Positions 16,586 through 24,222 of a stretch of DNA of 40,334 bases are shown piece by piece. The stretch is from contig JAFZKT010000036.1 in NCBI GenBank assembly GCA_017553545.1, positions 1 to 40,334 on the forward strand. The letters run 5' to 3'. This DNA is from Bacteroidales bacterium (GTDB taxonomy: Bacteria > Bacteroidota > Bacteroidia > Bacteroidales > UBA932). Within the stretch, counting starts at the first letter, position 1; each line of letters begins with the position of its first letter. Both the position numbers and the translations under genes were made by a program. Below the pieces are notes generated by a model. That model was given only the letters and a program-made list of their open reading frames with translations, made no database searches and was not told where the DNA came from.

Positions 16586-18004
16586 ATGCGACACTTTTTC
16601 CCCATACTCCTGGTGTGTTTCCTGGGCTCGGTTTTAGGAGCCTCCGCACACGATTTTAAATCCGGAGACCTTTATTTCAACATTACGGGAAAAGATGAAG
16701 TTGAGGTTACACATAAAGGGAAATTCGTTAAGGCGAATCATCCGTCCTACCCCGGGATAAAGGAGATAACCATTCCACCTTCGGTTAGCCGCCGAGGTAT
16801 CGTCTATAAAGTCACCAGTGTCGGAAAGGCAGCCTTTAGTGAATGCAAGGATCTGGAAAAGGTTATCATAGGGGAGGGCATCTCATCCATTGGCGATTAT
16901 GCTTTTCTCAACTGCATGGCACTCGAAGAGGTGGTTATACCTGAGAGTGTCCGGAAAATTGGCGAGAGTGCTTTCTGCAAATCGGGGCTGCCCCTGATTC
17001 GAATTCCACTGACGGTGCTGGAAATCGGGTCTAATGCGTTTTCCGGTTGCGAGCATCTCGCAAAGGTCTTCTACGACGGGGACCCCGACAATCCAACGGA
17101 CTGGAACATCCCTTCCGGATTGTTTGAGAACTGTAAATCGCTCGTTTCGCTTTCGTTGGAGGATCGGCGGGTTACCGGCGTCGGAGACCATGCCTTCCAT
17201 GCTTGTCGGCAGCTTCTATATTTCCCCTACAAGTACTGTAAAGTTATCGGGAATTACGCTTTTGCTTATTGTGACAAGCTAAGCGACACACAAGATGGCA
17301 TCCTCTATTTTGACGCCATTGAAACAATTGGGGAGCATGCCTTTAGTGGCTGCCTGTCCATACAGGAAGTTCTTGTTTCGTCCGAGAACCTTTCCTCTGT
17401 AGGAAGCTATGCTTTCGGCGGCTGTTCTTCATTAATCCGTGTCGTTCTCCCCAAGGGGGTCTCGGCCCTCCCCGGCGATGCGTTCTACGTGACTCCCCTG
17501 CAGGAACTGTATTGTTCCACTTATTCATATAGTATTTCCCTGCAACAATGCAAGCCCACAGTATTCTGTTACGAGAGCCTGTCCAACCTGAAAGACCCCG
17601 GCGAGGACCAGCCGACGGAAATATGCCATCTTACCTATGACAAATCCATCCGGAATAGCAAGGCGACACGCCTGAAGGTGGACATGTGCATCTACAATCA
17701 AGGCGGGTTTGTCATCAAGGTGGGAACGAATACGGATTTCTGCTTCAAAATTATCAAGTACAGTTATTTCCCGGATGCCAAGGAAGTTGTCTTTTACAAT
17801 CCCGACCGCCGCATTTCCCTTCATATCACACCCGACAATGCGGAATTGGTGTATGGCCAGAACTACAGGGAATACTTTTATGTGTCAGGCGCCTCCTCCT
17901 CCACAGACAATGTCAAGGCCATTGGACTGATGGCGGAAAAGTTCGCATTCAAAGAAAAGGGAGGCAGCCCTAGTACGTTGTATTATCACTATATGGGCTT
18001 CTGA
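16586..18004 (+). CDS. BspA-type leucine-rich-repeat surface protein
   Basis: 472 aa. Signal peptide (1-21). Residues about 60-315 hold successive LRR_5 repeats with the consensus (I)G..AF..C..L..V.IP, for example 'VTSVGKAAFSECKDLEKVII', 'ISSIGDYAFLNCMALEEVVI' and 'VGSYAFGGCSSLIRVVLP'. Such repeats build extracellular solenoids used in adhesion by Treponema, Tannerella and gut Bacteroidales. The last 130 residues or so are non-repetitive and end 'YYHYMGF'; no sorting signal is recognised. Its codon use looks more AT-rich than its neighbours, with no GGCCGAT heptamer. It converges on the repeat array at 18053. Confidence 0.85.
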   Translation: MRHFFPILLVCFLGSVLGASAHDFKSGDLYFNITGKDEVEVTHKGKFVKANHPSYPGIKEITIPPSVSRRGIVYKVTSVGKAAFSECKDLEKVIIGEGISSIGDYAFLNCMALEEVVIPESVRKIGESAFCKSGLPLIRIPLTVLEIGSNAFSGCEHLAKVFYDGDPDNPTDWNIPSGLFENCKSLVSLSLEDRRVTGVGDHAFHACRQLLYFPYKYCKVIGNYAFAYCDKLSDTQDGILYFDAIETIGEHAFSGCLSIQEVLVSSENLSSVGSYAFGGCSSLIRVVLPKGVSALPGDAFYVTPLQELYCSTYSYSISLQQCKPTVFCYESLSNLKDPGEDQPTEICHLTYDKSIRNSKATRLKVDMCIYNQGGFVIKVGTNTDFCFKIIKYSYFPDAKEVVFYNPDRRISLHITPDNAELVYGQNYREYFYVSGASSSTDNVKAIGLMAEKFAFKEKGGSPSTLYYHYMGF

Positions 18005-18052: not shown

Positions 18053-18175
18053 GGCGCAGGTACCCCTTGCGAATGGCGCAGGTGTCCCGGCAAAAATTAC
18101 ACCTGCACCAGTTTTAGCCTACACCTGCACCGTTCTGTTCGGGTACCTGCACCATTCGGGCCCCACACCTGCGCC
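18053..18175 (-). repeat. 22-bp-periodic array of GGnGCAGGT units, copy 1
   Basis: On the minus strand four direct units GG(C/T)GCAGGT lie at 18167-18175, 18145-18153, 18123-18131 and 18101-18109, exactly 22 bp apart with unrelated 13-bp spacers. Two inverted units follow at 18075-18083 and 18053-18061, again 22 bp apart. The last direct and first inverted unit form an 11-bp hairpin (18075-18085 with 18099-18109, one G.U-type position) around a 13-nt loop rich in T. Twenty-two is not a multiple of three, so this is not a repeat-protein gene. The gap 18005-18353 holds only this element and a putative terminator. Confidence 0.85.
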
Positions 18176-18187
18176 AGTTAGTATGTG

Positions 18188-18282
18188 GCACGGCAGAACC
18201 TCAATTTTGACCAAATATCCACGCTCTCCCGTGCTCCAGCACGACGGAACCCGAGATTTCGCTGATTATTTGTGTTGCGCCG
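18188..18282 (-). repeat. 95-bp conserved block, copy 1 (paired with 22475-22569)
   Basis: Read on the minus strand it aligns without gaps to 22475-22569, with 84 of 95 positions identical. The most conserved stretches are CGAAATCTCGGGTTCCG and, further on, AGCACGGGAGAGCG followed by TGGATATTTGG. In this copy CGTGCT-GG-AGCACG can form a hairpin, and AGCACGGC just outside one end is complementary to GCCGTGC at the other. It begins 71 bp after the stop of the DUF1508 gene on the same strand and leads directly into the 22-bp array. Confidence 0.85.
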
Positions 18283-18301
18283 TGCTGGACAGGATACAAT
18301 A

Positions 18302-18333
18302 AACGGCGACAACCCCGGAAGGCTGCCGCCGTT
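18302..18333 (-). terminator. Putative terminator of the DUF1508 gene
   Basis: Arms AACGGCG (18302-18308) and CGCCGTT (18327-18333) pair perfectly. On the minus strand the stem is followed by a T-rich TTTATTGTAT. It lies 21 bp beyond the stop codon at 18354 and before the repeat element, so the element would be transcribed only by read-through. Confidence 0.5.
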
Positions 18334-18353
18334 AACTAACTTAAAAAGGGAAA

Positions 18354-18683
18354 CTACAGTTCCTCTACGACGGGGGCTTCCGGAGCGTTCTTGGCGACGG
18401 AGGCGATGCCGGCCTTCAGCGTTGCCGGGGAGGCGTACATCTGGCTGGCGCCCACCACCTGGCCGTTGGAGGCTTTCAGGTTGAAGTAGGGCTTGCCGTT
18501 CTTGGCGACCTTCACCTCGAACCTTTCGGGAATAGCCGCGTTTTTCTTCACGGACTCGATGCCGTTCAGGCAGGCGGGTTTGGTGGTGTAGCCTTCGCTG
18601 GTGAGGATAACCTGGCCGTTGGTGGCCTTCAGGTTGAACTGATACTCCCCGTTTTTACGGAGTGTGATGACGAATTTACCCAT
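18354..18683 (-). CDS. DUF1508 (YegP-like) tandem-domain protein
   Basis: 109 aa. Two copies of the same roughly 48-residue unit: residues 2-50 ('FVITLRKNGEYQFNLKATNG') and 54-103 ('FEVKVAKNGKPYFNLKASNG'), each followed by 'GQV' and a helix ('CLNGIESVKKNA' / 'LKAGIASVAKNA'). This is the YegP fold, a small intertwined alpha/beta protein of unknown biochemical role, found widely in bacteria as tandem pairs. It ends in an acidic tail 'APVVEEL'. It has its own promoter box at 18709 and probably its own terminator. Confidence 0.9.
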   Translation of the reverse strand: MGKFVITLRKNGEYQFNLKATNGQVILTSEGYTTKPACLNGIESVKKNAAIPERFEVKVAKNGKPYFNLKASNGQVVGASQMYASPATLKAGIASVAKNAPEAPVVEEL

Positions 18684-18708
18684 AATTAGTTTTGTGTTGT
18701 TTTGGTAT

Positions 18709-18717
18709 ACAAAAATA
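18709..18717 (-). promoter_or_regulatory. -7 box (TATTTTTGT) for the DUF1508 gene
   Basis: TAnnTTTG match 27 nt upstream of ATG 18683, in an AT-rich 48-bp gap between galM and this gene. It predicts a leader of about 22 nt. Confidence 0.6.
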
Positions 18718-18731
18718 AGAATTATTCTGGA

Positions 18732-19787
18732 TTATTCCACATCAAAAGCCCAAATTATTGCCTCCTGGAAAACCTCCCCCGGCTTTAATACCGTAGAGGG
18801 ATACTCAGGCTTGTTGGGCGAATCCGGGCAGTGCTGGCATTCGATGGCCACGGCGTCGTAGTCTTCATAGGCGCGGCCGCCTTTTCCCACCGGGCAGCCC
18901 TTAAGCCAGTTGCCGGTGTAGATTTGCACGGCGGGCTGGGTGGTGTAAACGGTGAGATGCCGCCCTGAATGAGCGGCCCAAAGCTGTGCGGCCTCCGTCA
19001 ACTGCCCCGGCATGGCGCCGTCGATGAGGAAGCAGTTGTCGTAGCCCTTGCCGATTTTCAGCGCGGGGAAGTCGGCCTTGATATCCCGGCCGACAGCCTT
19101 CGCCTCCACGAAATCCATCGGCGTTCCCGCCACGTCTTCCGGAGCGCCCAGCGGGATCAACGACTCATCCGTGGGGAGCCACTGGGAGGCGTTGAGCTGG
19201 AGCTTATGGTCCAATACGCTGCCGGAAGCCTCCCCGTCCAGGTTGAAGTAGACGTGGTTGGTGAGGTTTACCACCGTGGGTTTGTCGGCCTGTGCCGTAA
19301 GGATGAGCTTGAGGGAATTGTCCTCCCCCCAGGTGTAATGCGCAACAGCTTTCAGGTTGCCGGGATAGCCTGCCTCGCCGTCCTCGGAGAAGTAGGTGAA
19401 TTCCACGGCATCACCCTCGATGCGGCTGTCCCACACCTGGTTCTGAAAGCCGTCGGGACCGCCGTGCAGGTGGTTGGGGCCGTTGTTGATGGGCAGCGAA
19501 AAATCCTTTCCGTCCAGCGTGAAATGTCCCTTCGCGATTCGGTTGGCATAGCGGCCGGGTATCTTTCCGGAGCAGGGGCCGTCGGCAAAATAGTCCAGGG
19601 GATTGGGATAGCCGATGACAACATCGGCCAGCCTCCCTTCCGCATCCGGCACATTGATGGAGACGATGGCGGCTCCTACGCTGCAAAGTTGCACGCTGGC
19701 GCCCGAAGCGTTCTTCAGGGTGTAGAGGAAAATCTCTTTTCCGTCGGGGGTCTTTCCCCACAGTTTTTTGTCGATGGCAGATGTCAT
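18732..19787 (-). CDS. galM: Aldose 1-epimerase (mutarotase)
   Basis: 351 aa. It interconverts alpha- and beta-anomers of glucose and galactose, the first step for galactose use by the Leloir pathway; galK lies 11 kb away at 30138. Motifs: 'GRYANRIAKGHF' substrate loop, 'INNGPNHLHGGPDGF', the catalytic His in 'VNLTNHVYFNL', and the general-base Glu in 'VAIECQHCPDSPN'. No signal peptide, so cytoplasmic. The start at 19787 was preferred over 19817 because it lies downstream of the -7 box at 19804 and matches the family length. Divergent from mutS. Confidence 0.95.
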   Translation of the reverse strand: MTSAIDKKLWGKTPDGKEIFLYTLKNASGASVQLCSVGAAIVSINVPDAEGRLADVVIGYPNPLDYFADGPCSGKIPGRYANRIAKGHFTLDGKDFSLPINNGPNHLHGGPDGFQNQVWDSRIEGDAVEFTYFSEDGEAGYPGNLKAVAHYTWGEDNSLKLILTAQADKPTVVNLTNHVYFNLDGEASGSVLDHKLQLNASQWLPTDESLIPLGAPEDVAGTPMDFVEAKAVGRDIKADFPALKIGKGYDNCFLIDGAMPGQLTEAAQLWAAHSGRHLTVYTTQPAVQIYTGNWLKGCPVGKGGRAYEDYDAVAIECQHCPDSPNKPEYPSTVLKPGEVFQEAIIWAFDVE

Positions 19788-19803
19788 GGTGAACAGTGTT
19801 TTT

Positions 19804-19812
19804 ACAAATGTA
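19804..19812 (-). promoter_or_regulatory. -7 box (TACATTTGT) for galM
   Basis: TAnnTTTG match, G 18 nt before ATG 19787. The divergent mutS box begins 13 bp away. Confidence 0.65.
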
Positions 19813-19825
19813 CGCAATTATTTCT

Positions 19826-19834
19826 TATCTTTGT
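19826..19834 (+). promoter_or_regulatory. -7 box (TATCTTTGT) for mutS; predicts a leaderless transcript
   Basis: TAnnTTTG match, G 7 nt before ATG 19840. Transcription should begin within about 3 nt of the start codon. Confidence 0.65.
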
Positions 19835-19839
19835 ATGCT

Positions 19840-22464
19840 ATGGCAAAAATCGCGGAAGATACTCCCATGCTGCGGCATTACTTCGAGGTTAAGGCAACGC
19901 ACCCCGAAGCCCTGCTGCTGTATCGCGTGGGAGACTTTTATGAGACTTATGCCGACGATGCCATCACGGCCGTGAAGGTGCTGGGCCTGGTCCAGACAAA
20001 GAAATCCAATGGGGAAAAGGGCCCCGTGGCCATGGCCGGCTTCCCGCATCACGCCCTGGAGAATTACCTCACGAAACTGGTGCGCGCCGGCTACAAAGTG
20101 GCGGTGTGCGACCAGCTGGAGGACCCGAAATTCGCCAAAAAGCTGGTAAAGCGCGGCGTGACGGAGATTGTCACCCCCGGCATCTCCTTCGGGGAGAATA
20201 TGCTGGAAGTGAAAGAGAACAACTTCCTGTGCGGTCTCACCGTGGAAAAGGACCAGTGCGGCGCCGCGTTCCTGGATGTATCCACCGGGCAGTTCCAGGT
20301 GGCGCAGGGTTCGCTGGACTACATTGCCACCCTGGTTGGTTCCCTGAAACCCAAGGAGCTGGTGGTCCAGCGCGGCTGCGAAAAAGGCTTCAAGGAGCGC
20401 CTGGGGGATATTTTCATTACCTCCATCGACGAATGGGCCTTCGTTTACGATGCCGCCGTGGAGCGCCTCAAGCGGCAGCTTCAGGTGGAAAGCCTGAAAG
20501 GGTTCGCGGTGGATCCCTATCCGCTGGGCATCTGCAGCTGCGGCGCGTTGCTGGTTTATCTGGAGCAGACGCAGCACAGCGGCCTCAAGAACATCTGCAC
20601 GTTAGGGCGCATCGACGAAGGAAAGTTCGTCTGGATGGACCGCTTCACCCTCCGTAATCTGGAAGTATTCCAAAGTGCGGCCGGGGAGGGCGGCGTCTCG
20701 CTGGTGCAGACGCTGGACCGCTGCTCCTCGCCGATGGGCGCCCGTATGCTGCGGCAGTGGCTGGCGATGCCCATCATGGACATCAAGGAGCTGGAAGGCC
20801 GATACGACATTGTCCAATACTTCACCGAAAATCCCGACACCCTGGAGGGAACGGAAATCGACCTCGGGAAAATCGGCGACATGGAGCGCATCCTGGGCCG
20901 TATCGCCACCGGGAAAGCCTATCCCCGCGAGGTGATGCAGCTGGGCCGCGGGCTTGCGCTCATCGGCCCCATCCGGGAACGCCTGCAGGACAGTCCCGCG
21001 CTGGAAAAACTGCTCAAGGGCCTGAAGAACTGCGAAAAGCTCCTCGCCGAAATCCGCCGCGTGATGGATCCGGAGCCCGCTATCCAGATTGGGAAAGGCC
21101 CCGTGATTGCGGAAGGCGTGGACGAAGAGCTGGACGAGCTGCGCGGCCTCTCCGCCGGCGGCAAGGATTACCTCCTGCAGATGCAGCAGCGGGAGGCCGA
21201 AAGAACCGGAATCTCTTCGCTGAAGATTGCCTACAACAACGTTTTCGGCTACTATATCGAAGTCCGCAACACTTACAAGGACCAGGTACCGCCGGAGTGG
21301 ATTCGTAAGCAGACGCTGGTAAATGCGGAGCGGTACATTACTGAGGAACTGAAGGCCTACGAAGAAAAGATTCTCACGGCCGAAGACCGCATCTACGCCA
21401 TTGAAACCCGCATTTACGGGGAACTCATCGGCCATATCCAGCAGCAGATCCCCGCCATCCAGTGCAACAGCCGGATCCTGGCGAAACTGGACGTTCTGGC
21501 CGGCTTTGCCCGGCAGGCCCTGGACTGGCACTACTGCCGTCCGGAAGTGAACGACTCCAAGGCGCTTGATATCCGCGCCGGCCGCCATCCTGTCATCGAG
21601 ACGCTGATGCCCGCCGGGGAGGAATACGTTCCCAACGACGTGTATCTGGATGCGGAAAAGCAGCAGATCATCATTCTCACCGGTCCCAACATGGCGGGTA
21701 AGTCGGCCCTGTTGAGGCAGACGGCGCTCATCGCCCTGATGGCCCAGACGGGATCTTTCGTTCCTGCAGCGGAAGCGCACATCGGCTATCTGGACAAACT
21801 CTTCACCCGCGTGGGGGCTACGGACAACATCTCCCGCGGCGAATCCACCTTCATGGTGGAAATGCTGGAGACGGCGATGATTCTGAACAACCTGAGCGGA
21901 CGTTCGCTGGTGCTGCTGGATGAAATCGGCCGCGGCACCTCCACCTACGACGGCATGTCCATCGCCCGCGGCATCGTGGAATACATCCACGAATACGGCA
22001 AGGGCGCCAAGACGCTTTTCGCCACGCATTATCACGAACTGAATGATCTGGAAGGCCTTTTCCCGCGCGTGAAGAACTTCCACGTGACGGTGAAGGAAGT
22101 GGGCCGGGAAGTGCTCTTCCTCCGCAAGATCAAGGAGGGCGGGACGGCGCACAGCTTCGGTATCCACGTGGCGCGGATGGCCGGTATGCCGGGGCCCGTG
22201 CTGGACAGCGCGGAACGCACCCTTAAGGCGCTGGAGAACAGCCAGCGGCTGGATGCCATCGGCGCGCTCACGCCCGTGAAGCCCCACCAGACCAAAGCCG
22301 GCAAAGTGGAGGGCGACGGTTCTCTGCAATTATCCATGTTCCAGCTGGACGATCCTCTGCTGGAGTCGTTAAGGGACCGTCTCAAGGCCGCGGACCTCAA
22401 CAACATGACGCCTCTGCAGGCATTTGACCTCCTGCGGGTGATGAAAGAAGAGTTGGGAATTTAA
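19840..22464 (+). CDS. mutS: DNA mismatch repair protein MutS
   Basis: 874 aa, normal for MutS1. The mismatch-probing Phe-x-Glu motif is present in GDFYETY (31-37, Phe33 and Glu35). The C-terminal ATPase has Walker A TGPNMAGKS (about 614-622), 'STFMVEMLET', the Walker B/signature region 'LVLLDEIGRGTSTYDG' and 'ATHYHEL'. It binds mismatches and small loops as a dimer and recruits MutL, which is not in this window. The start at 19840 gives the usual N-terminus; an upstream ATG at 19768 would run through both promoters. The repeat element at 22475 begins 10 bp after its stop codon. Confidence 0.97.
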   Translation: MAKIAEDTPMLRHYFEVKATHPEALLLYRVGDFYETYADDAITAVKVLGLVQTKKSNGEKGPVAMAGFPHHALENYLTKLVRAGYKVAVCDQLEDPKFAKKLVKRGVTEIVTPGISFGENMLEVKENNFLCGLTVEKDQCGAAFLDVSTGQFQVAQGSLDYIATLVGSLKPKELVVQRGCEKGFKERLGDIFITSIDEWAFVYDAAVERLKRQLQVESLKGFAVDPYPLGICSCGALLVYLEQTQHSGLKNICTLGRIDEGKFVWMDRFTLRNLEVFQSAAGEGGVSLVQTLDRCSSPMGARMLRQWLAMPIMDIKELEGRYDIVQYFTENPDTLEGTEIDLGKIGDMERILGRIATGKAYPREVMQLGRGLALIGPIRERLQDSPALEKLLKGLKNCEKLLAEIRRVMDPEPAIQIGKGPVIAEGVDEELDELRGLSAGGKDYLLQMQQREAERTGISSLKIAYNNVFGYYIEVRNTYKDQVPPEWIRKQTLVNAERYITEELKAYEEKILTAEDRIYAIETRIYGELIGHIQQQIPAIQCNSRILAKLDVLAGFARQALDWHYCRPEVNDSKALDIRAGRHPVIETLMPAGEEYVPNDVYLDAEKQQIIILTGPNMAGKSALLRQTALIALMAQTGSFVPAAEAHIGYLDKLFTRVGATDNISRGESTFMVEMLETAMILNNLSGRSLVLLDEIGRGTSTYDGMSIARGIVEYIHEYGKGAKTLFATHYHELNDLEGLFPRVKNFHVTVKEVGREVLFLRKIKEGGTAHSFGIHVARMAGMPGPVLDSAERTLKALENSQRLDAIGALTPVKPHQTKAGKVEGDGSLQLSMFQLDDPLLESLRDRLKAADLNNMTPLQAFDLLRVMKEELGI

Positions 22465-22474
22465 TTCCACCGCC

Positions 22475-22569
22475 CGGCGCAGCGTAAATAATTGGCGAAA
22501 TCTCGGGTTCCGCCGGGCTATAGCACGGGAGAGCGTGGATATTTGGCCAAAATTGGGGTTCTGCCGTGC
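22475..22569 (+). repeat. 95-bp conserved block, copy 2 (paired with 18188-18282)
   Basis: Gap-free partner of the minus-strand block at 18188-18282 (84/95 identical). It starts 10 bp after the mutS stop, in the same orientation. The palindrome TTTGGCCAAA is perfect here and has one change in copy 1. The hairpin CGTGCT-AGCACG of copy 1 is altered to CGGGCT-AGCACG, so strict base-pairing is not conserved at that place. Confidence 0.85.
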
Positions 22570-22581
22570 TGCTTCCAAACT

Positions 22582-22760
22582 GGTGCAGGACCCGGATGGA
22601 GCAGGTGCAAGGCTCGGATGGCGCAGGTGTGGGGACTGAATGGAGCAGGTGCATTTTTTGCCGGGGTTCCTGCGCCACTAGAACGCACGGAATGCAGAAA
22701 TGCGGCGCAGGTGCAGACACTTTCATTGCACCTGCTCCATTTGCACAGGGTACCTGCGCC
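22582..22760 (+). repeat. 22-bp-periodic array of GGnGCAGGT units, copy 2
   Basis: Direct units at 22582-22590 (ending GGA), 22598-22606, 22620-22628 and 22642-22650: the first step is 16 bp and the next two are 22 bp. As in copy 1, a T-run and GCCGGGG follow the fourth unit, then an inverted CCTGCGCC (to 22676). Copy 2 carries extra material: another direct unit (22704-22712) and inverted units at 22730-22738 and 22752-22760, again 22 bp apart. The gap 22465-22842 holds only this element and the long hairpin after it. Confidence 0.85.
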
Positions 22761-22842: not shown

Positions 22843-24201
22843 CTACATCAGCAGATTCGTGACAAACACCACGATAATGCCCACGGGGGCGACGTAACGC
22901 ATCAGGAAATAGACGGCGCCGAAGAGGCGGACGTTCTTCGTGCCGCCGTTGGTGAATTCGTCGCGGACATCGGCCTTGGACATCTTCCAGCCCACGAAGA
23001 GGGTGAAGATGAGACCGCCCATCGGCATCAGCCAGTCGGAGCACAGGTGGTCCAGGAAGAAGAAAAAGGTGGCGCCCAGAATCTTCACACCGGAAAGCGG
23101 GCCGAAAGACAGGCTGCACAGTACCCCCACCAGCCAGCAGAGGAACCCCAGCAGCAGGGTGGCGTTGCGGCGTTTGAAGCCCTTTTCGTCGGCGAGAAAA
23201 GCCACGCCCACTTCCAGCATGGAGATGGCCGATGTCAGCGCGGCCGCCAGGATGGTCACGAAGAAGAAGACCGATATAACCGAACTCACCAGCGGCACGC
23301 CCTCGCCCATCTTGTTGAAGATATAGGGCAGGGTTTCGAACAGCAGGGACGGCCCGTCGGTAGGCTTAAGCCCCGCGGCAAACACGCTGGGGATGACGGC
23401 GAAAGCGGCGATGAGGGCGAAGATAAGGTCGCTCACGGCCGTCCCCACGCCGGAAATGTGCAGGTCCTCCTCCTTTTTAACGTATGAGGCATAGGTGAGA
23501 ATGGCCCCCACGCCCAGCGACAGCGAGAAGAAGGCCTGTCCCAGGGCGGCGGCGCAGGCGCCCGCCGTCAGACGGGAGAAATCCGGCTTCAGCAGATATT
23601 CCACGCCCGCAAACGCGCCCGGCAGCGTGAGGGAATAGACGGCGATGACCAAAATCAGCAGGAACAGCGCCGGCATCGCCAGTTTGGAGAACTTCTCTAT
23701 CCCCTTGGACACCCCGCCCAGGACCACGGCCACCACTGCGGCCATAAAGACCGTATGCGTGAGGATGGGCTGATAAGGCGAGGAGATGAAGCGGCCGAAA
23801 AAATCTGGAATCTCGGAGGCCGGCATATCCATGAAGTCGAAGGAGAGGGACTTGAAGAGGTATTCCACGCTCCAACCGCCCACTACGGAATAGTAACTGA
23901 GAATGAGTATCGGGGAAATGATGGTCAGCAGGCCCGCCCAGCGCCAGGGAGTGCCCGGGGCTAGTTTTTTCATCGCGCCGAAAGTGTCCGAGCGGGAACG
24001 GCGGCCGATAATGGATTCCGCGTATAAGATGGGGAGTCCAAGAACAAGGGTGGCGGCGATATAGACCAGAATGAAAGCCGCGCCGCCGTATTCGCCCAGA
24101 ATATAGGGGAAGCGCCAGATATTGCCCAGGCCCACGGCACTTCCGGCCATGGCGGCAATGACAGCGAAGCGGCTGCCGAATTTTTCTCGTTTCTGTTCCA
24201 T
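22843..24201 (-). CDS. Sodium-dependent transporter, neurotransmitter:sodium symporter (NSS/SNF) family
   Basis: 452 aa, about 11-12 membrane segments. The N-terminal signature GSAVGLGNIWRFPY (20-33) is the unwound TM1 that binds Na+ and substrate in LeuT; 'LGLPILYAESIIGRRSR' follows. Bacterial members usually import amino acids or tryptophan-like substrates; the substrate here cannot be told. ATG 24201 was preferred over TTG 24204. It is the last gene of a thyA-folA-transporter run, 21 bp after folA. The association with folate enzymes is probably organisational. Confidence 0.9.
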   Translation of the reverse strand: MEQKREKFGSRFAVIAAMAGSAVGLGNIWRFPYILGEYGGAAFILVYIAATLVLGLPILYAESIIGRRSRSDTFGAMKKLAPGTPWRWAGLLTIISPILILSYYSVVGGWSVEYLFKSLSFDFMDMPASEIPDFFGRFISSPYQPILTHTVFMAAVVAVVLGGVSKGIEKFSKLAMPALFLLILVIAVYSLTLPGAFAGVEYLLKPDFSRLTAGACAAALGQAFFSLSLGVGAILTYASYVKKEEDLHISGVGTAVSDLIFALIAAFAVIPSVFAAGLKPTDGPSLLFETLPYIFNKMGEGVPLVSSVISVFFFVTILAAALTSAISMLEVGVAFLADEKGFKRRNATLLLGFLCWLVGVLCSLSFGPLSGVKILGATFFFFLDHLCSDWLMPMGGLIFTLFVGWKMSKADVRDEFTNGGTKNVRLFGAVYFLMRYVAPVGIIVVFVTNLLM

Positions 24202-24222
24202 CAAGTTCGTTTTACCGTCCTT

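What the first reader, a model, noticed from the sequence alone, without database searches (positions are those of the whole stretch)
18188..22569. A 95-bp conserved block present twice, inverted, downstream of unrelated genes
18188-18282 (minus) and 22475-22569 (plus) align with no gaps and 84 identities. Neither codes for protein, and the conservation exceeds what chance gives. Both lie just downstream of a gene on the same strand (DUF1508 gene, mutS), in the gap between convergent genes, and both lead into the same kind of repeat array. This looks like an undescribed interspersed element: a MITE-like mobile repeat, a REP-type structure or a 3'-UTR/non-coding RNA module. I do not recognise it.
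Basis: seen in the sequence. Interest (0 to 1): 0.8.

Follow-up and report, generated by a model that had tools for sequence, protein, structure and literature searches.

The report
Tandem-hairpin mobile repeat with its transposase
The 95-base block is one of at least 14 copies of a small repeat in an uncultured Bacteroidales genome; two copies flank a single-strand-DNA transposase-like gene that probably spreads them, and repeats beside many related genes, though different in sequence, keep the same two-unit layout about 52 bases apart.

Summary
Observation confirmed: 84 of 95 ungapped identities. The block (element A) is a head-to-tail dimer of two ~49-bp units, each with AGCAC...GTGCT arms. 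Fourteen copies were found in this 80.5%-complete MAG, all with a 51-bp internal offset. The adjoining array is a separate repeat, B. Copies of A flank both sides of a 312-aa Y1/HUH transposase-like gene on contig C81, the layout of REP/RAYT systems. Among 71 homologue loci the best tandem offset beside the gene is 51-53 bp in 42 of 70 downstream windows, against 8 of 129 distant windows and 2 of 17 windows beside E. coli rayT and shorter-matching Bacteroidota Y1 genes. Downstream repeats match between loci in 7 of 8 gene pairs at least 75% identical, and in 0 of 2,407 other pairs. In one relative the mutS gap is about 3 nt, so A+B is probably inserted there. A has no conserved GT[AG]G foot, is head-to-tail, and shows no compensatory change above shuffles. 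Verdict: a new variant of the REP/RAYT kind.

The parts
22471..22571 (+). Element A copy C29b: unit 1 about 22471-22519, unit 2 about 22522-22570, offset 51 bp
18187..18286 (-). Element A copy C29a: unit 1 about 18238-18286, unit 2 about 18187-18235 (read on the minus strand)
22575..22760 (+). Element B: 22-bp-spaced GGMGCAGGTG repeats, then a core with inverted CACCTGCKCC repeats; neighbour of A, not part of it
18053..18181 (-). Second, more divergent B-like array beside the other A copy
19840..22464 (+). mutS, ends 6 bp before A
22843..24204 (-). SNF-type symporter gene, convergent with mutS
18354..18683 (-). DUF1508 gene, upstream of the second A copy on the same strand
16586..18004 (+). 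LRR (BspA type) protein gene, convergent with the DUF1508 gene

Best explanation
Element A is the cognate repeat of a REP-associated-type Y1/HUH transposase encoded elsewhere in the same genome (C81:22081-23019, 312 aa). Each copy is a ~100-bp head-to-tail dimer with a fixed 51-bp offset. Shown: dispersed copies; copies on both sides of the gene; the 51-53-bp dimer layout beside many related genes whose repeats differ in sequence; repeat sequence shared only between close gene relatives. Inferred: a transposase dimer recognises the two like-oriented units on single-stranded DNA, much as TnpA binds the left and right ends of IS200/IS605 elements (recalled geometry), cuts near the GTGCT foot (CT dinucleotides, by analogy with TnpAREP, PMC8266576 passages) and copies or moves the dimer to other intergenic sites. 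The two window copies would be such insertions beside B arrays.
For: 14 copies with a 51-bp offset. A lies 4 bp after the stop and 166 bp before the start of the C81 gene, both in gene orientation. The gene: NCBIfam REP_Tyr_transpos 19.5 bits, E 7.7e-4; H71, H73 and Y129 invariant in 25 homologues; 20 of those 25 match Pfam Y1_Tnp at E <= 0.1. Flank matching: 25 of 58 loci direct at >= 40 bits, against 1 of 348 mismatched pairs. Offset 51-53: 42 of 70 downstream and 44 of 71 upstream windows, against 8 of 129 distant windows, 18 of 350 shuffles and 2 of 17 windows beside other Y1 genes. Junction TGCT-NN-AGCA near genes 35 times, 1.05 expected. Repeats match in 7 of 8 gene pairs >= 75% identical, 0 of 2,407 others. 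mutS gap about 3 nt in G151, 378 nt here.
Against: C81 alone matches no Pfam family at E <= 0.1 and stays below the NCBIfam cut-off of 80 bits. About 40% of flanks do not show the 51-53 offset, and 30 of 58 loci show no flank match at >= 40 bits. No compensatory changes above shuffles. Only 14 copies. No precise empty site with A's boundaries was found in the loci fetched. Five copies sit in shared D-type flanks, so they may have travelled with D. Loci are not all independent: duplicates were dropped only if the last 200 aa were identical. Cutting and movement are untested.
Confidence: 0.75

Rival explanations
1. Solo relics: many A copies are what remains after recombination between the two direct repeats flanking a complete transposase unit, as solo LTRs arise, rather than dimers that moved alone.
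For: Flanking repeats match mostly in direct orientation (25 direct, 5 inverted of 58). The gap holding copy C81far in G000 looks orthologous to the gap where G176 carries a RAYT with its own repeats (L102, compared by eye).
Against: Five copies 92-95% alike at separate places suggest spread of the dimer or of a D-flanked composite. No remains of the gene were noticed beside other copies, but this was not searched systematically.
Confidence: 0.12
2. A 3'-UTR element, terminator or non-coding RNA.
For: Both window copies lie downstream of a gene on the same strand. The arms pair in 87% of cells, against 28-39% when slid.
Against: No Rfam match; no covariation above shuffles; neighbouring genes vary in orientation over the 14 copies; matches in 1 of 149 family genomes, the own one.
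Confidence: 0.05
3. An array of binding sites for a host DNA-binding protein, not mobile.
For: Fixed spacing near five helical turns.
Against: Copies flank transposase genes, and repeat sequence follows the gene.
Confidence: 0.06
4. A single local duplication.
For: The two window copies are each other's nearest relatives.
Against: Twelve other copies in the genome.
Confidence: 0.02

Closest known systems
REP sequences with RAYT/TnpAREP (REPtrons; PMC2817692, PMC6006769, PMC8266576)
   Same: A Y1/HUH gene with copies on both sides and further copies between genes; each gene has its own repeat family; several such genes per genome.
   Different: Units ~49 bp, arranged head-to-tail at 51-53 bp; no conserved GT[AG]G foot; protein ~310 aa; 14 copies instead of the >100 usual for REPs. 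PMC2817692 (abstract passage) calls RAYT genes always flanked by inverted REPs; PMC3733652 (passages) calls head-tail dimers absent, under-represented or negligible.
TnpAY1 subclass 2.6 (RAYT group 5), mostly Bacteroidetes, flanked by atypical structures (PMC6006769, sections 11, 12 and 15 part 2, and passages)
   Same: Phylum; atypical flanking structures without GT[AG]G; copies elsewhere in the genome.
   Different: Mean length given as 179 aa; the text I read describes no tandem dimer or spacing. I could not compare with its sequences or supplement, so relationship to 2.6 is open.
TnpAY1 subclass 2.1 (C-terminal HTH domains; PMC6006769)
   Same: Long protein with a C-terminal extension.
   Different: 2.1 is reported without REP-like sequences; an HTH in our family is my reading, not a tool result.
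REPIN
   Same: A dimer of REP-like units as the dispersed unit.
   Different: REPINs are inverted pairs; A is head-to-tail.
IS200/IS605-derived MITE (recalled)
   Same: Two like-oriented hairpins as possible left and right ends.
   Different: The gene lies between two dimers, not inside one; ends and cutting untested.

Membership tests
REP/RAYT (REPtron) | Y1/HUH protein with HxH and catalytic Tyr | tested here: met
   H71, H73, Y129 invariant in 25 homologues; weak family matches: NCBIfam 19.5 bits below cut-off, Pfam Y1_Tnp in 20 of 25 members but not C81; profile to PDB 2xm3 transposase E 0.008
REP/RAYT (REPtron) | Gene flanked by repeats found elsewhere in the genome | tested here: met
   C81 gene with A on both sides, 12 other copies
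REP/RAYT (REPtron) | Repeat family specific to its gene | tested here: met
   7 of 8 pairs >= 75% identical, 0 of 2,407 others; orthologous position may add to the first figure
REP/RAYT (REPtron) | Conserved 5' GT[AG]G foot | tested here: not met
   Absent from 9 of 14 copies; single occurrences at differing positions in 5
REP/RAYT (REPtron) | Flanking repeats in inverted orientation | tested here: not met
   Direct at C81; 25 direct, 5 inverted of 58 loci. E. coli rayT flanks also matched directly in this test, so it discriminates poorly
REP/RAYT (REPtron) | High copy number (>100) | tested here: not met
   14 copies in an 80.5%-complete genome
REP/RAYT (REPtron) | Single-strand cutting of the repeat | not testable with these tools
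   needs purified protein
REPIN | Inverted pair of REPs | tested here: not met
   14 of 14 copies head-to-tail at 51 bp
Non-coding RNA | Compensatory base changes or known family | tested here: not met
TnpAY1 subclass 2.6 | Sequence membership of the protein | not tested
   no reference sequences of the subclass at hand

The most novel reading that the evidence does not exclude
A distinct class of RAYT system in uncultured, largely ruminant-associated Bacteroidales, in which the mobile unit is a head-to-tail dimer held at 51-53 bp (about five helical turns) whatever its sequence. The two units would act as left and right ends of a minimal single-strand transposon, with the C-terminal extension of the ~310-aa protein possibly setting the spacing.
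Probability: 0.45. Interest if true: 0.75.

Novelty: new variant of a known kind. Interest (0 to 1): 0.6.

Why it matters
Repeat sequences change completely between related transposases while the 51-53-bp spacing stays. That separates what the enzyme may measure from what it reads, and gives a simple computable signature for finding such pairs. Six Y1-like genes and several repeat families in one small genome also make a natural set for testing one-to-one pairing.

Tried and rejected
Rfam at gathering scores (only two tRNAs in neighbouring loci) and at E <= 1 (nothing). Covariation for two structures: no better than shuffles. Phage and plasmid collections: no match to the mutS-symporter gap at E <= 1e-5. 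Synteny of the DUF1508 gap: its neighbours were not found in the stretches taken upstream of mutS in G151 and G167, so that copy has no empty-site comparison. Empty site inside D-type flanks: none in the fetched own-genome loci. ORFs over A copies: the two longest tested have no Pfam family. A gene paired with B: not found; B gives matches in 20 of 300 genus genomes, own included, mostly partial. In some searches at most two first-look candidates per genome were scored, so counts there are lower bounds. Structure prediction: unavailable.

Full report
Observation. The two 95-base blocks align ungapped at 84 of 95. They lie between convergent genes: mutS and an SNF-type symporter, and an LRR protein and DUF1508. 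The element is about 100 bp: two units 51 bp apart, each with AGCAC...GTGCT arms.

Copies. A search of the window's own genome (1.76 Mb, 89 contigs, 80.5% complete) with the mutS-side stretch showed two separate repeats. Element B is the adjoining array, with 13 further places at E <= 2e-18. A consensus search gave 12 A copies covering 100-102 of 102 query positions and one half copy. Extending that one and finding another beside the C81 gene made 14. In 14 of 14 the best internal offset is 51 bp. Closest copies often lie on one contig (C29 pair, C33 pair, C81 pair). Five others, each 92-95% identical to its closest copies, share D-type flanks to varying extent.

Transposase. Pfam Y1_Tnp and NCBIfam REP_Tyr_transpos searches together found six Y1-like genes in the genome, on C9, C12, C20, C26, C60 and C81. 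None reached the NCBIfam cut-off; C26 passed the Pfam cut-off. C81 has A 4 bp after its stop and 166 bp before its start, both in gene orientation. C26 has family C on both sides (51-bp offset), the downstream copy lying behind a second gene; C20 has family D upstream. C60 has GCTTAAGATGG repeats on both sides, seen by eye. C12 and C9 showed no 51-53-bp dimer.

Relatives. Homologues of C81 occur in 56 of 149 family genomes at E <= 1e-5 and 55 of 300 genus genomes at E <= 1e-30, own genome included in both. A occurs in 1 of 149 (own) and 3 of 300 (at most two candidates per genome scored): own; G383, a 25-base match that looks like chance; and G151, an A-like dimer with the same arms, a 52-bp offset and a different interior. 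In a draw of 395 genomes of the phylum, 16 matched a profile of the family at E <= 1e-10; outside the own genome the listed matches covered only profile positions 7-163 of 309. Named relatives are 27 loci titled as Bacteroidales or Bacteroidia; many titles name a ruminant (sheep, goat, yak, water buffalo, water deer, dairy cattle), others are RUG or UBA records. Several of these contigs have the same lengths as contigs of G genomes, so the two sets overlap.

Layout rule. Of 59 homologue loci, one had too short a flank. Of the other 58, 25 have up- and downstream flanks matching directly at >= 40 bits, 5 inverted, 28 either; mismatched pairs gave 1 of 348 in each orientation. For the tandem test the 59 loci were pooled with the 27; L145 and L155 were left out and 13 with identical last 200 aa dropped, leaving 71. 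With offsets 25-100 allowed, the best was 51-53 bp in 42 of 70 downstream windows and 44 of 71 upstream ones; distant windows gave 8 of 129 and shuffles 18 of 350. Among windows scoring 18 or more, 32 of 34 downstream, 29 of 35 upstream and 3 of 7 distant had 51-53. The upstream figure is the best of several windows per locus, so the distant control fits the downstream figure better. By set, downstream: own 1 of 1, family-level 12 of 29, the rest 29 of 40. Beside E. coli rayT and 16 other Bacteroidota Y1 genes, 2 of 17 downstream windows had 51-53 and no upstream one did. The junction TGCT-NN-AGCA occurs 35 times within 400 bp of the genes, at 13 of 71 loci, own included, against 1.05 expected; 9 in 192 kb further out; 0 in gene bodies. 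B and D do not follow the 51-bp rule.

Co-divergence. Downstream repeats match at >= 40 bits in 7 of 8 gene pairs at least 75% identical and in 0 of 2,407 pairs below that. Shared position of close relatives may add to the first figure. The repeat of the G366 gene has 4 matches in G366 and 4 in G430, at least one in G366 and two in G430 away from the gene, and none in five other genomes tried, own included.

Insertion. In G151 (82% identical over the mutS end) mutS and the convergent symporter are about 3 nt apart; in G167 (82%) about 138 nt, with a different inverted repeat; here 378 nt, holding A and B (distances worked out from the hit ends). Loss in relatives is less likely, since A is seen in so few genomes, but not excluded.

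Against. No compensatory changes above shuffles, although arms pair in 87% of cells against 28-39% when slid (the nested alternative behaves alike). C81 alone has no Pfam match. Thirty of 58 loci show no flank match. E. coli rayT flanks, and several of the 16 others, also match directly in the flank test, so direct orientation by itself is not special; the 51-53-bp dimer is.

Literature. Seen: outline, passages and sections 11, 12 and 15 (part 2) of PMC6006769; passages of PMC3733652, PMC8266576, PMC2817692 and PMC12306157; otherwise search listings. In these I found no 51-53-bp head-to-tail RAYT repeat. The library holds open-licence papers only, and the supplement of PMC6006769, where subclass 2.6 structures are tabled, was not readable here. 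The IS608 end geometry is recalled; the helix-turn-helix look of the C-terminal extension is my reading.

Verdict. A mobile REP-like dimer with its own RAYT-like gene, a new variant of a known kind. Movement, cutting and the role of the spacing are inferred.

Noticed in passing
window 22575-22760; L003-L015: Element B: dispersed repeat with 22-bp-spaced GGMGCAGGTG copies on one side and inverted copies on the other of a conserved core; no gene paired with it was found.
   Followed up: partly
L033-L037 (own contigs C73, C37, C4, C82): Five A copies lie inside shared D-type flanks (GGACCTGGTCC palindromes), a composite of A and D.
   Followed up: partly
L060:1150-2500: The Y1 gene on C9 is enclosed by near-perfect inverted repeats (CCGTGGTCGTAACTATTTGATTCACTG and its complement) and ATCGATGGC palindromes, more like an insertion sequence.
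   Followed up: no
L184, after mutS: In G167 the mutS-symporter gap holds a different inverted repeat (GGGCCAGGTGGGATTT...AAATCCCACCTGGCCC).
   Followed up: no
L039:1501-1602 and L102: The gap holding A copy C81far looks orthologous to the gap where G176 carries a RAYT-like gene with its own repeats.
   Followed up: no
L064, just upstream of the gene ending at 1902 (minus strand): Inverted repeat GCCGTTTCA-TTTTTGC-TGAAACGGC directly before the C81 gene, perhaps an operator.
   Followed up: no
L006, L007, L009, L017, L021 left flanks: A further repeat of well over 100 bp (GTTCGACGACGTTATGGGC...GGACGTCCAGCG) precedes several A and B copies.
   Followed up: no
L011 and L014 left flanks: Paired TAAAGCACAC...GTGCTTTA units beside B copies, resembling the repeats next to the C60 gene.
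   Followed up: no
L051:2269-2955: A 228-aa gene without Pfam match sits between the C26 Y1 gene and its downstream repeat.
   Followed up: partly
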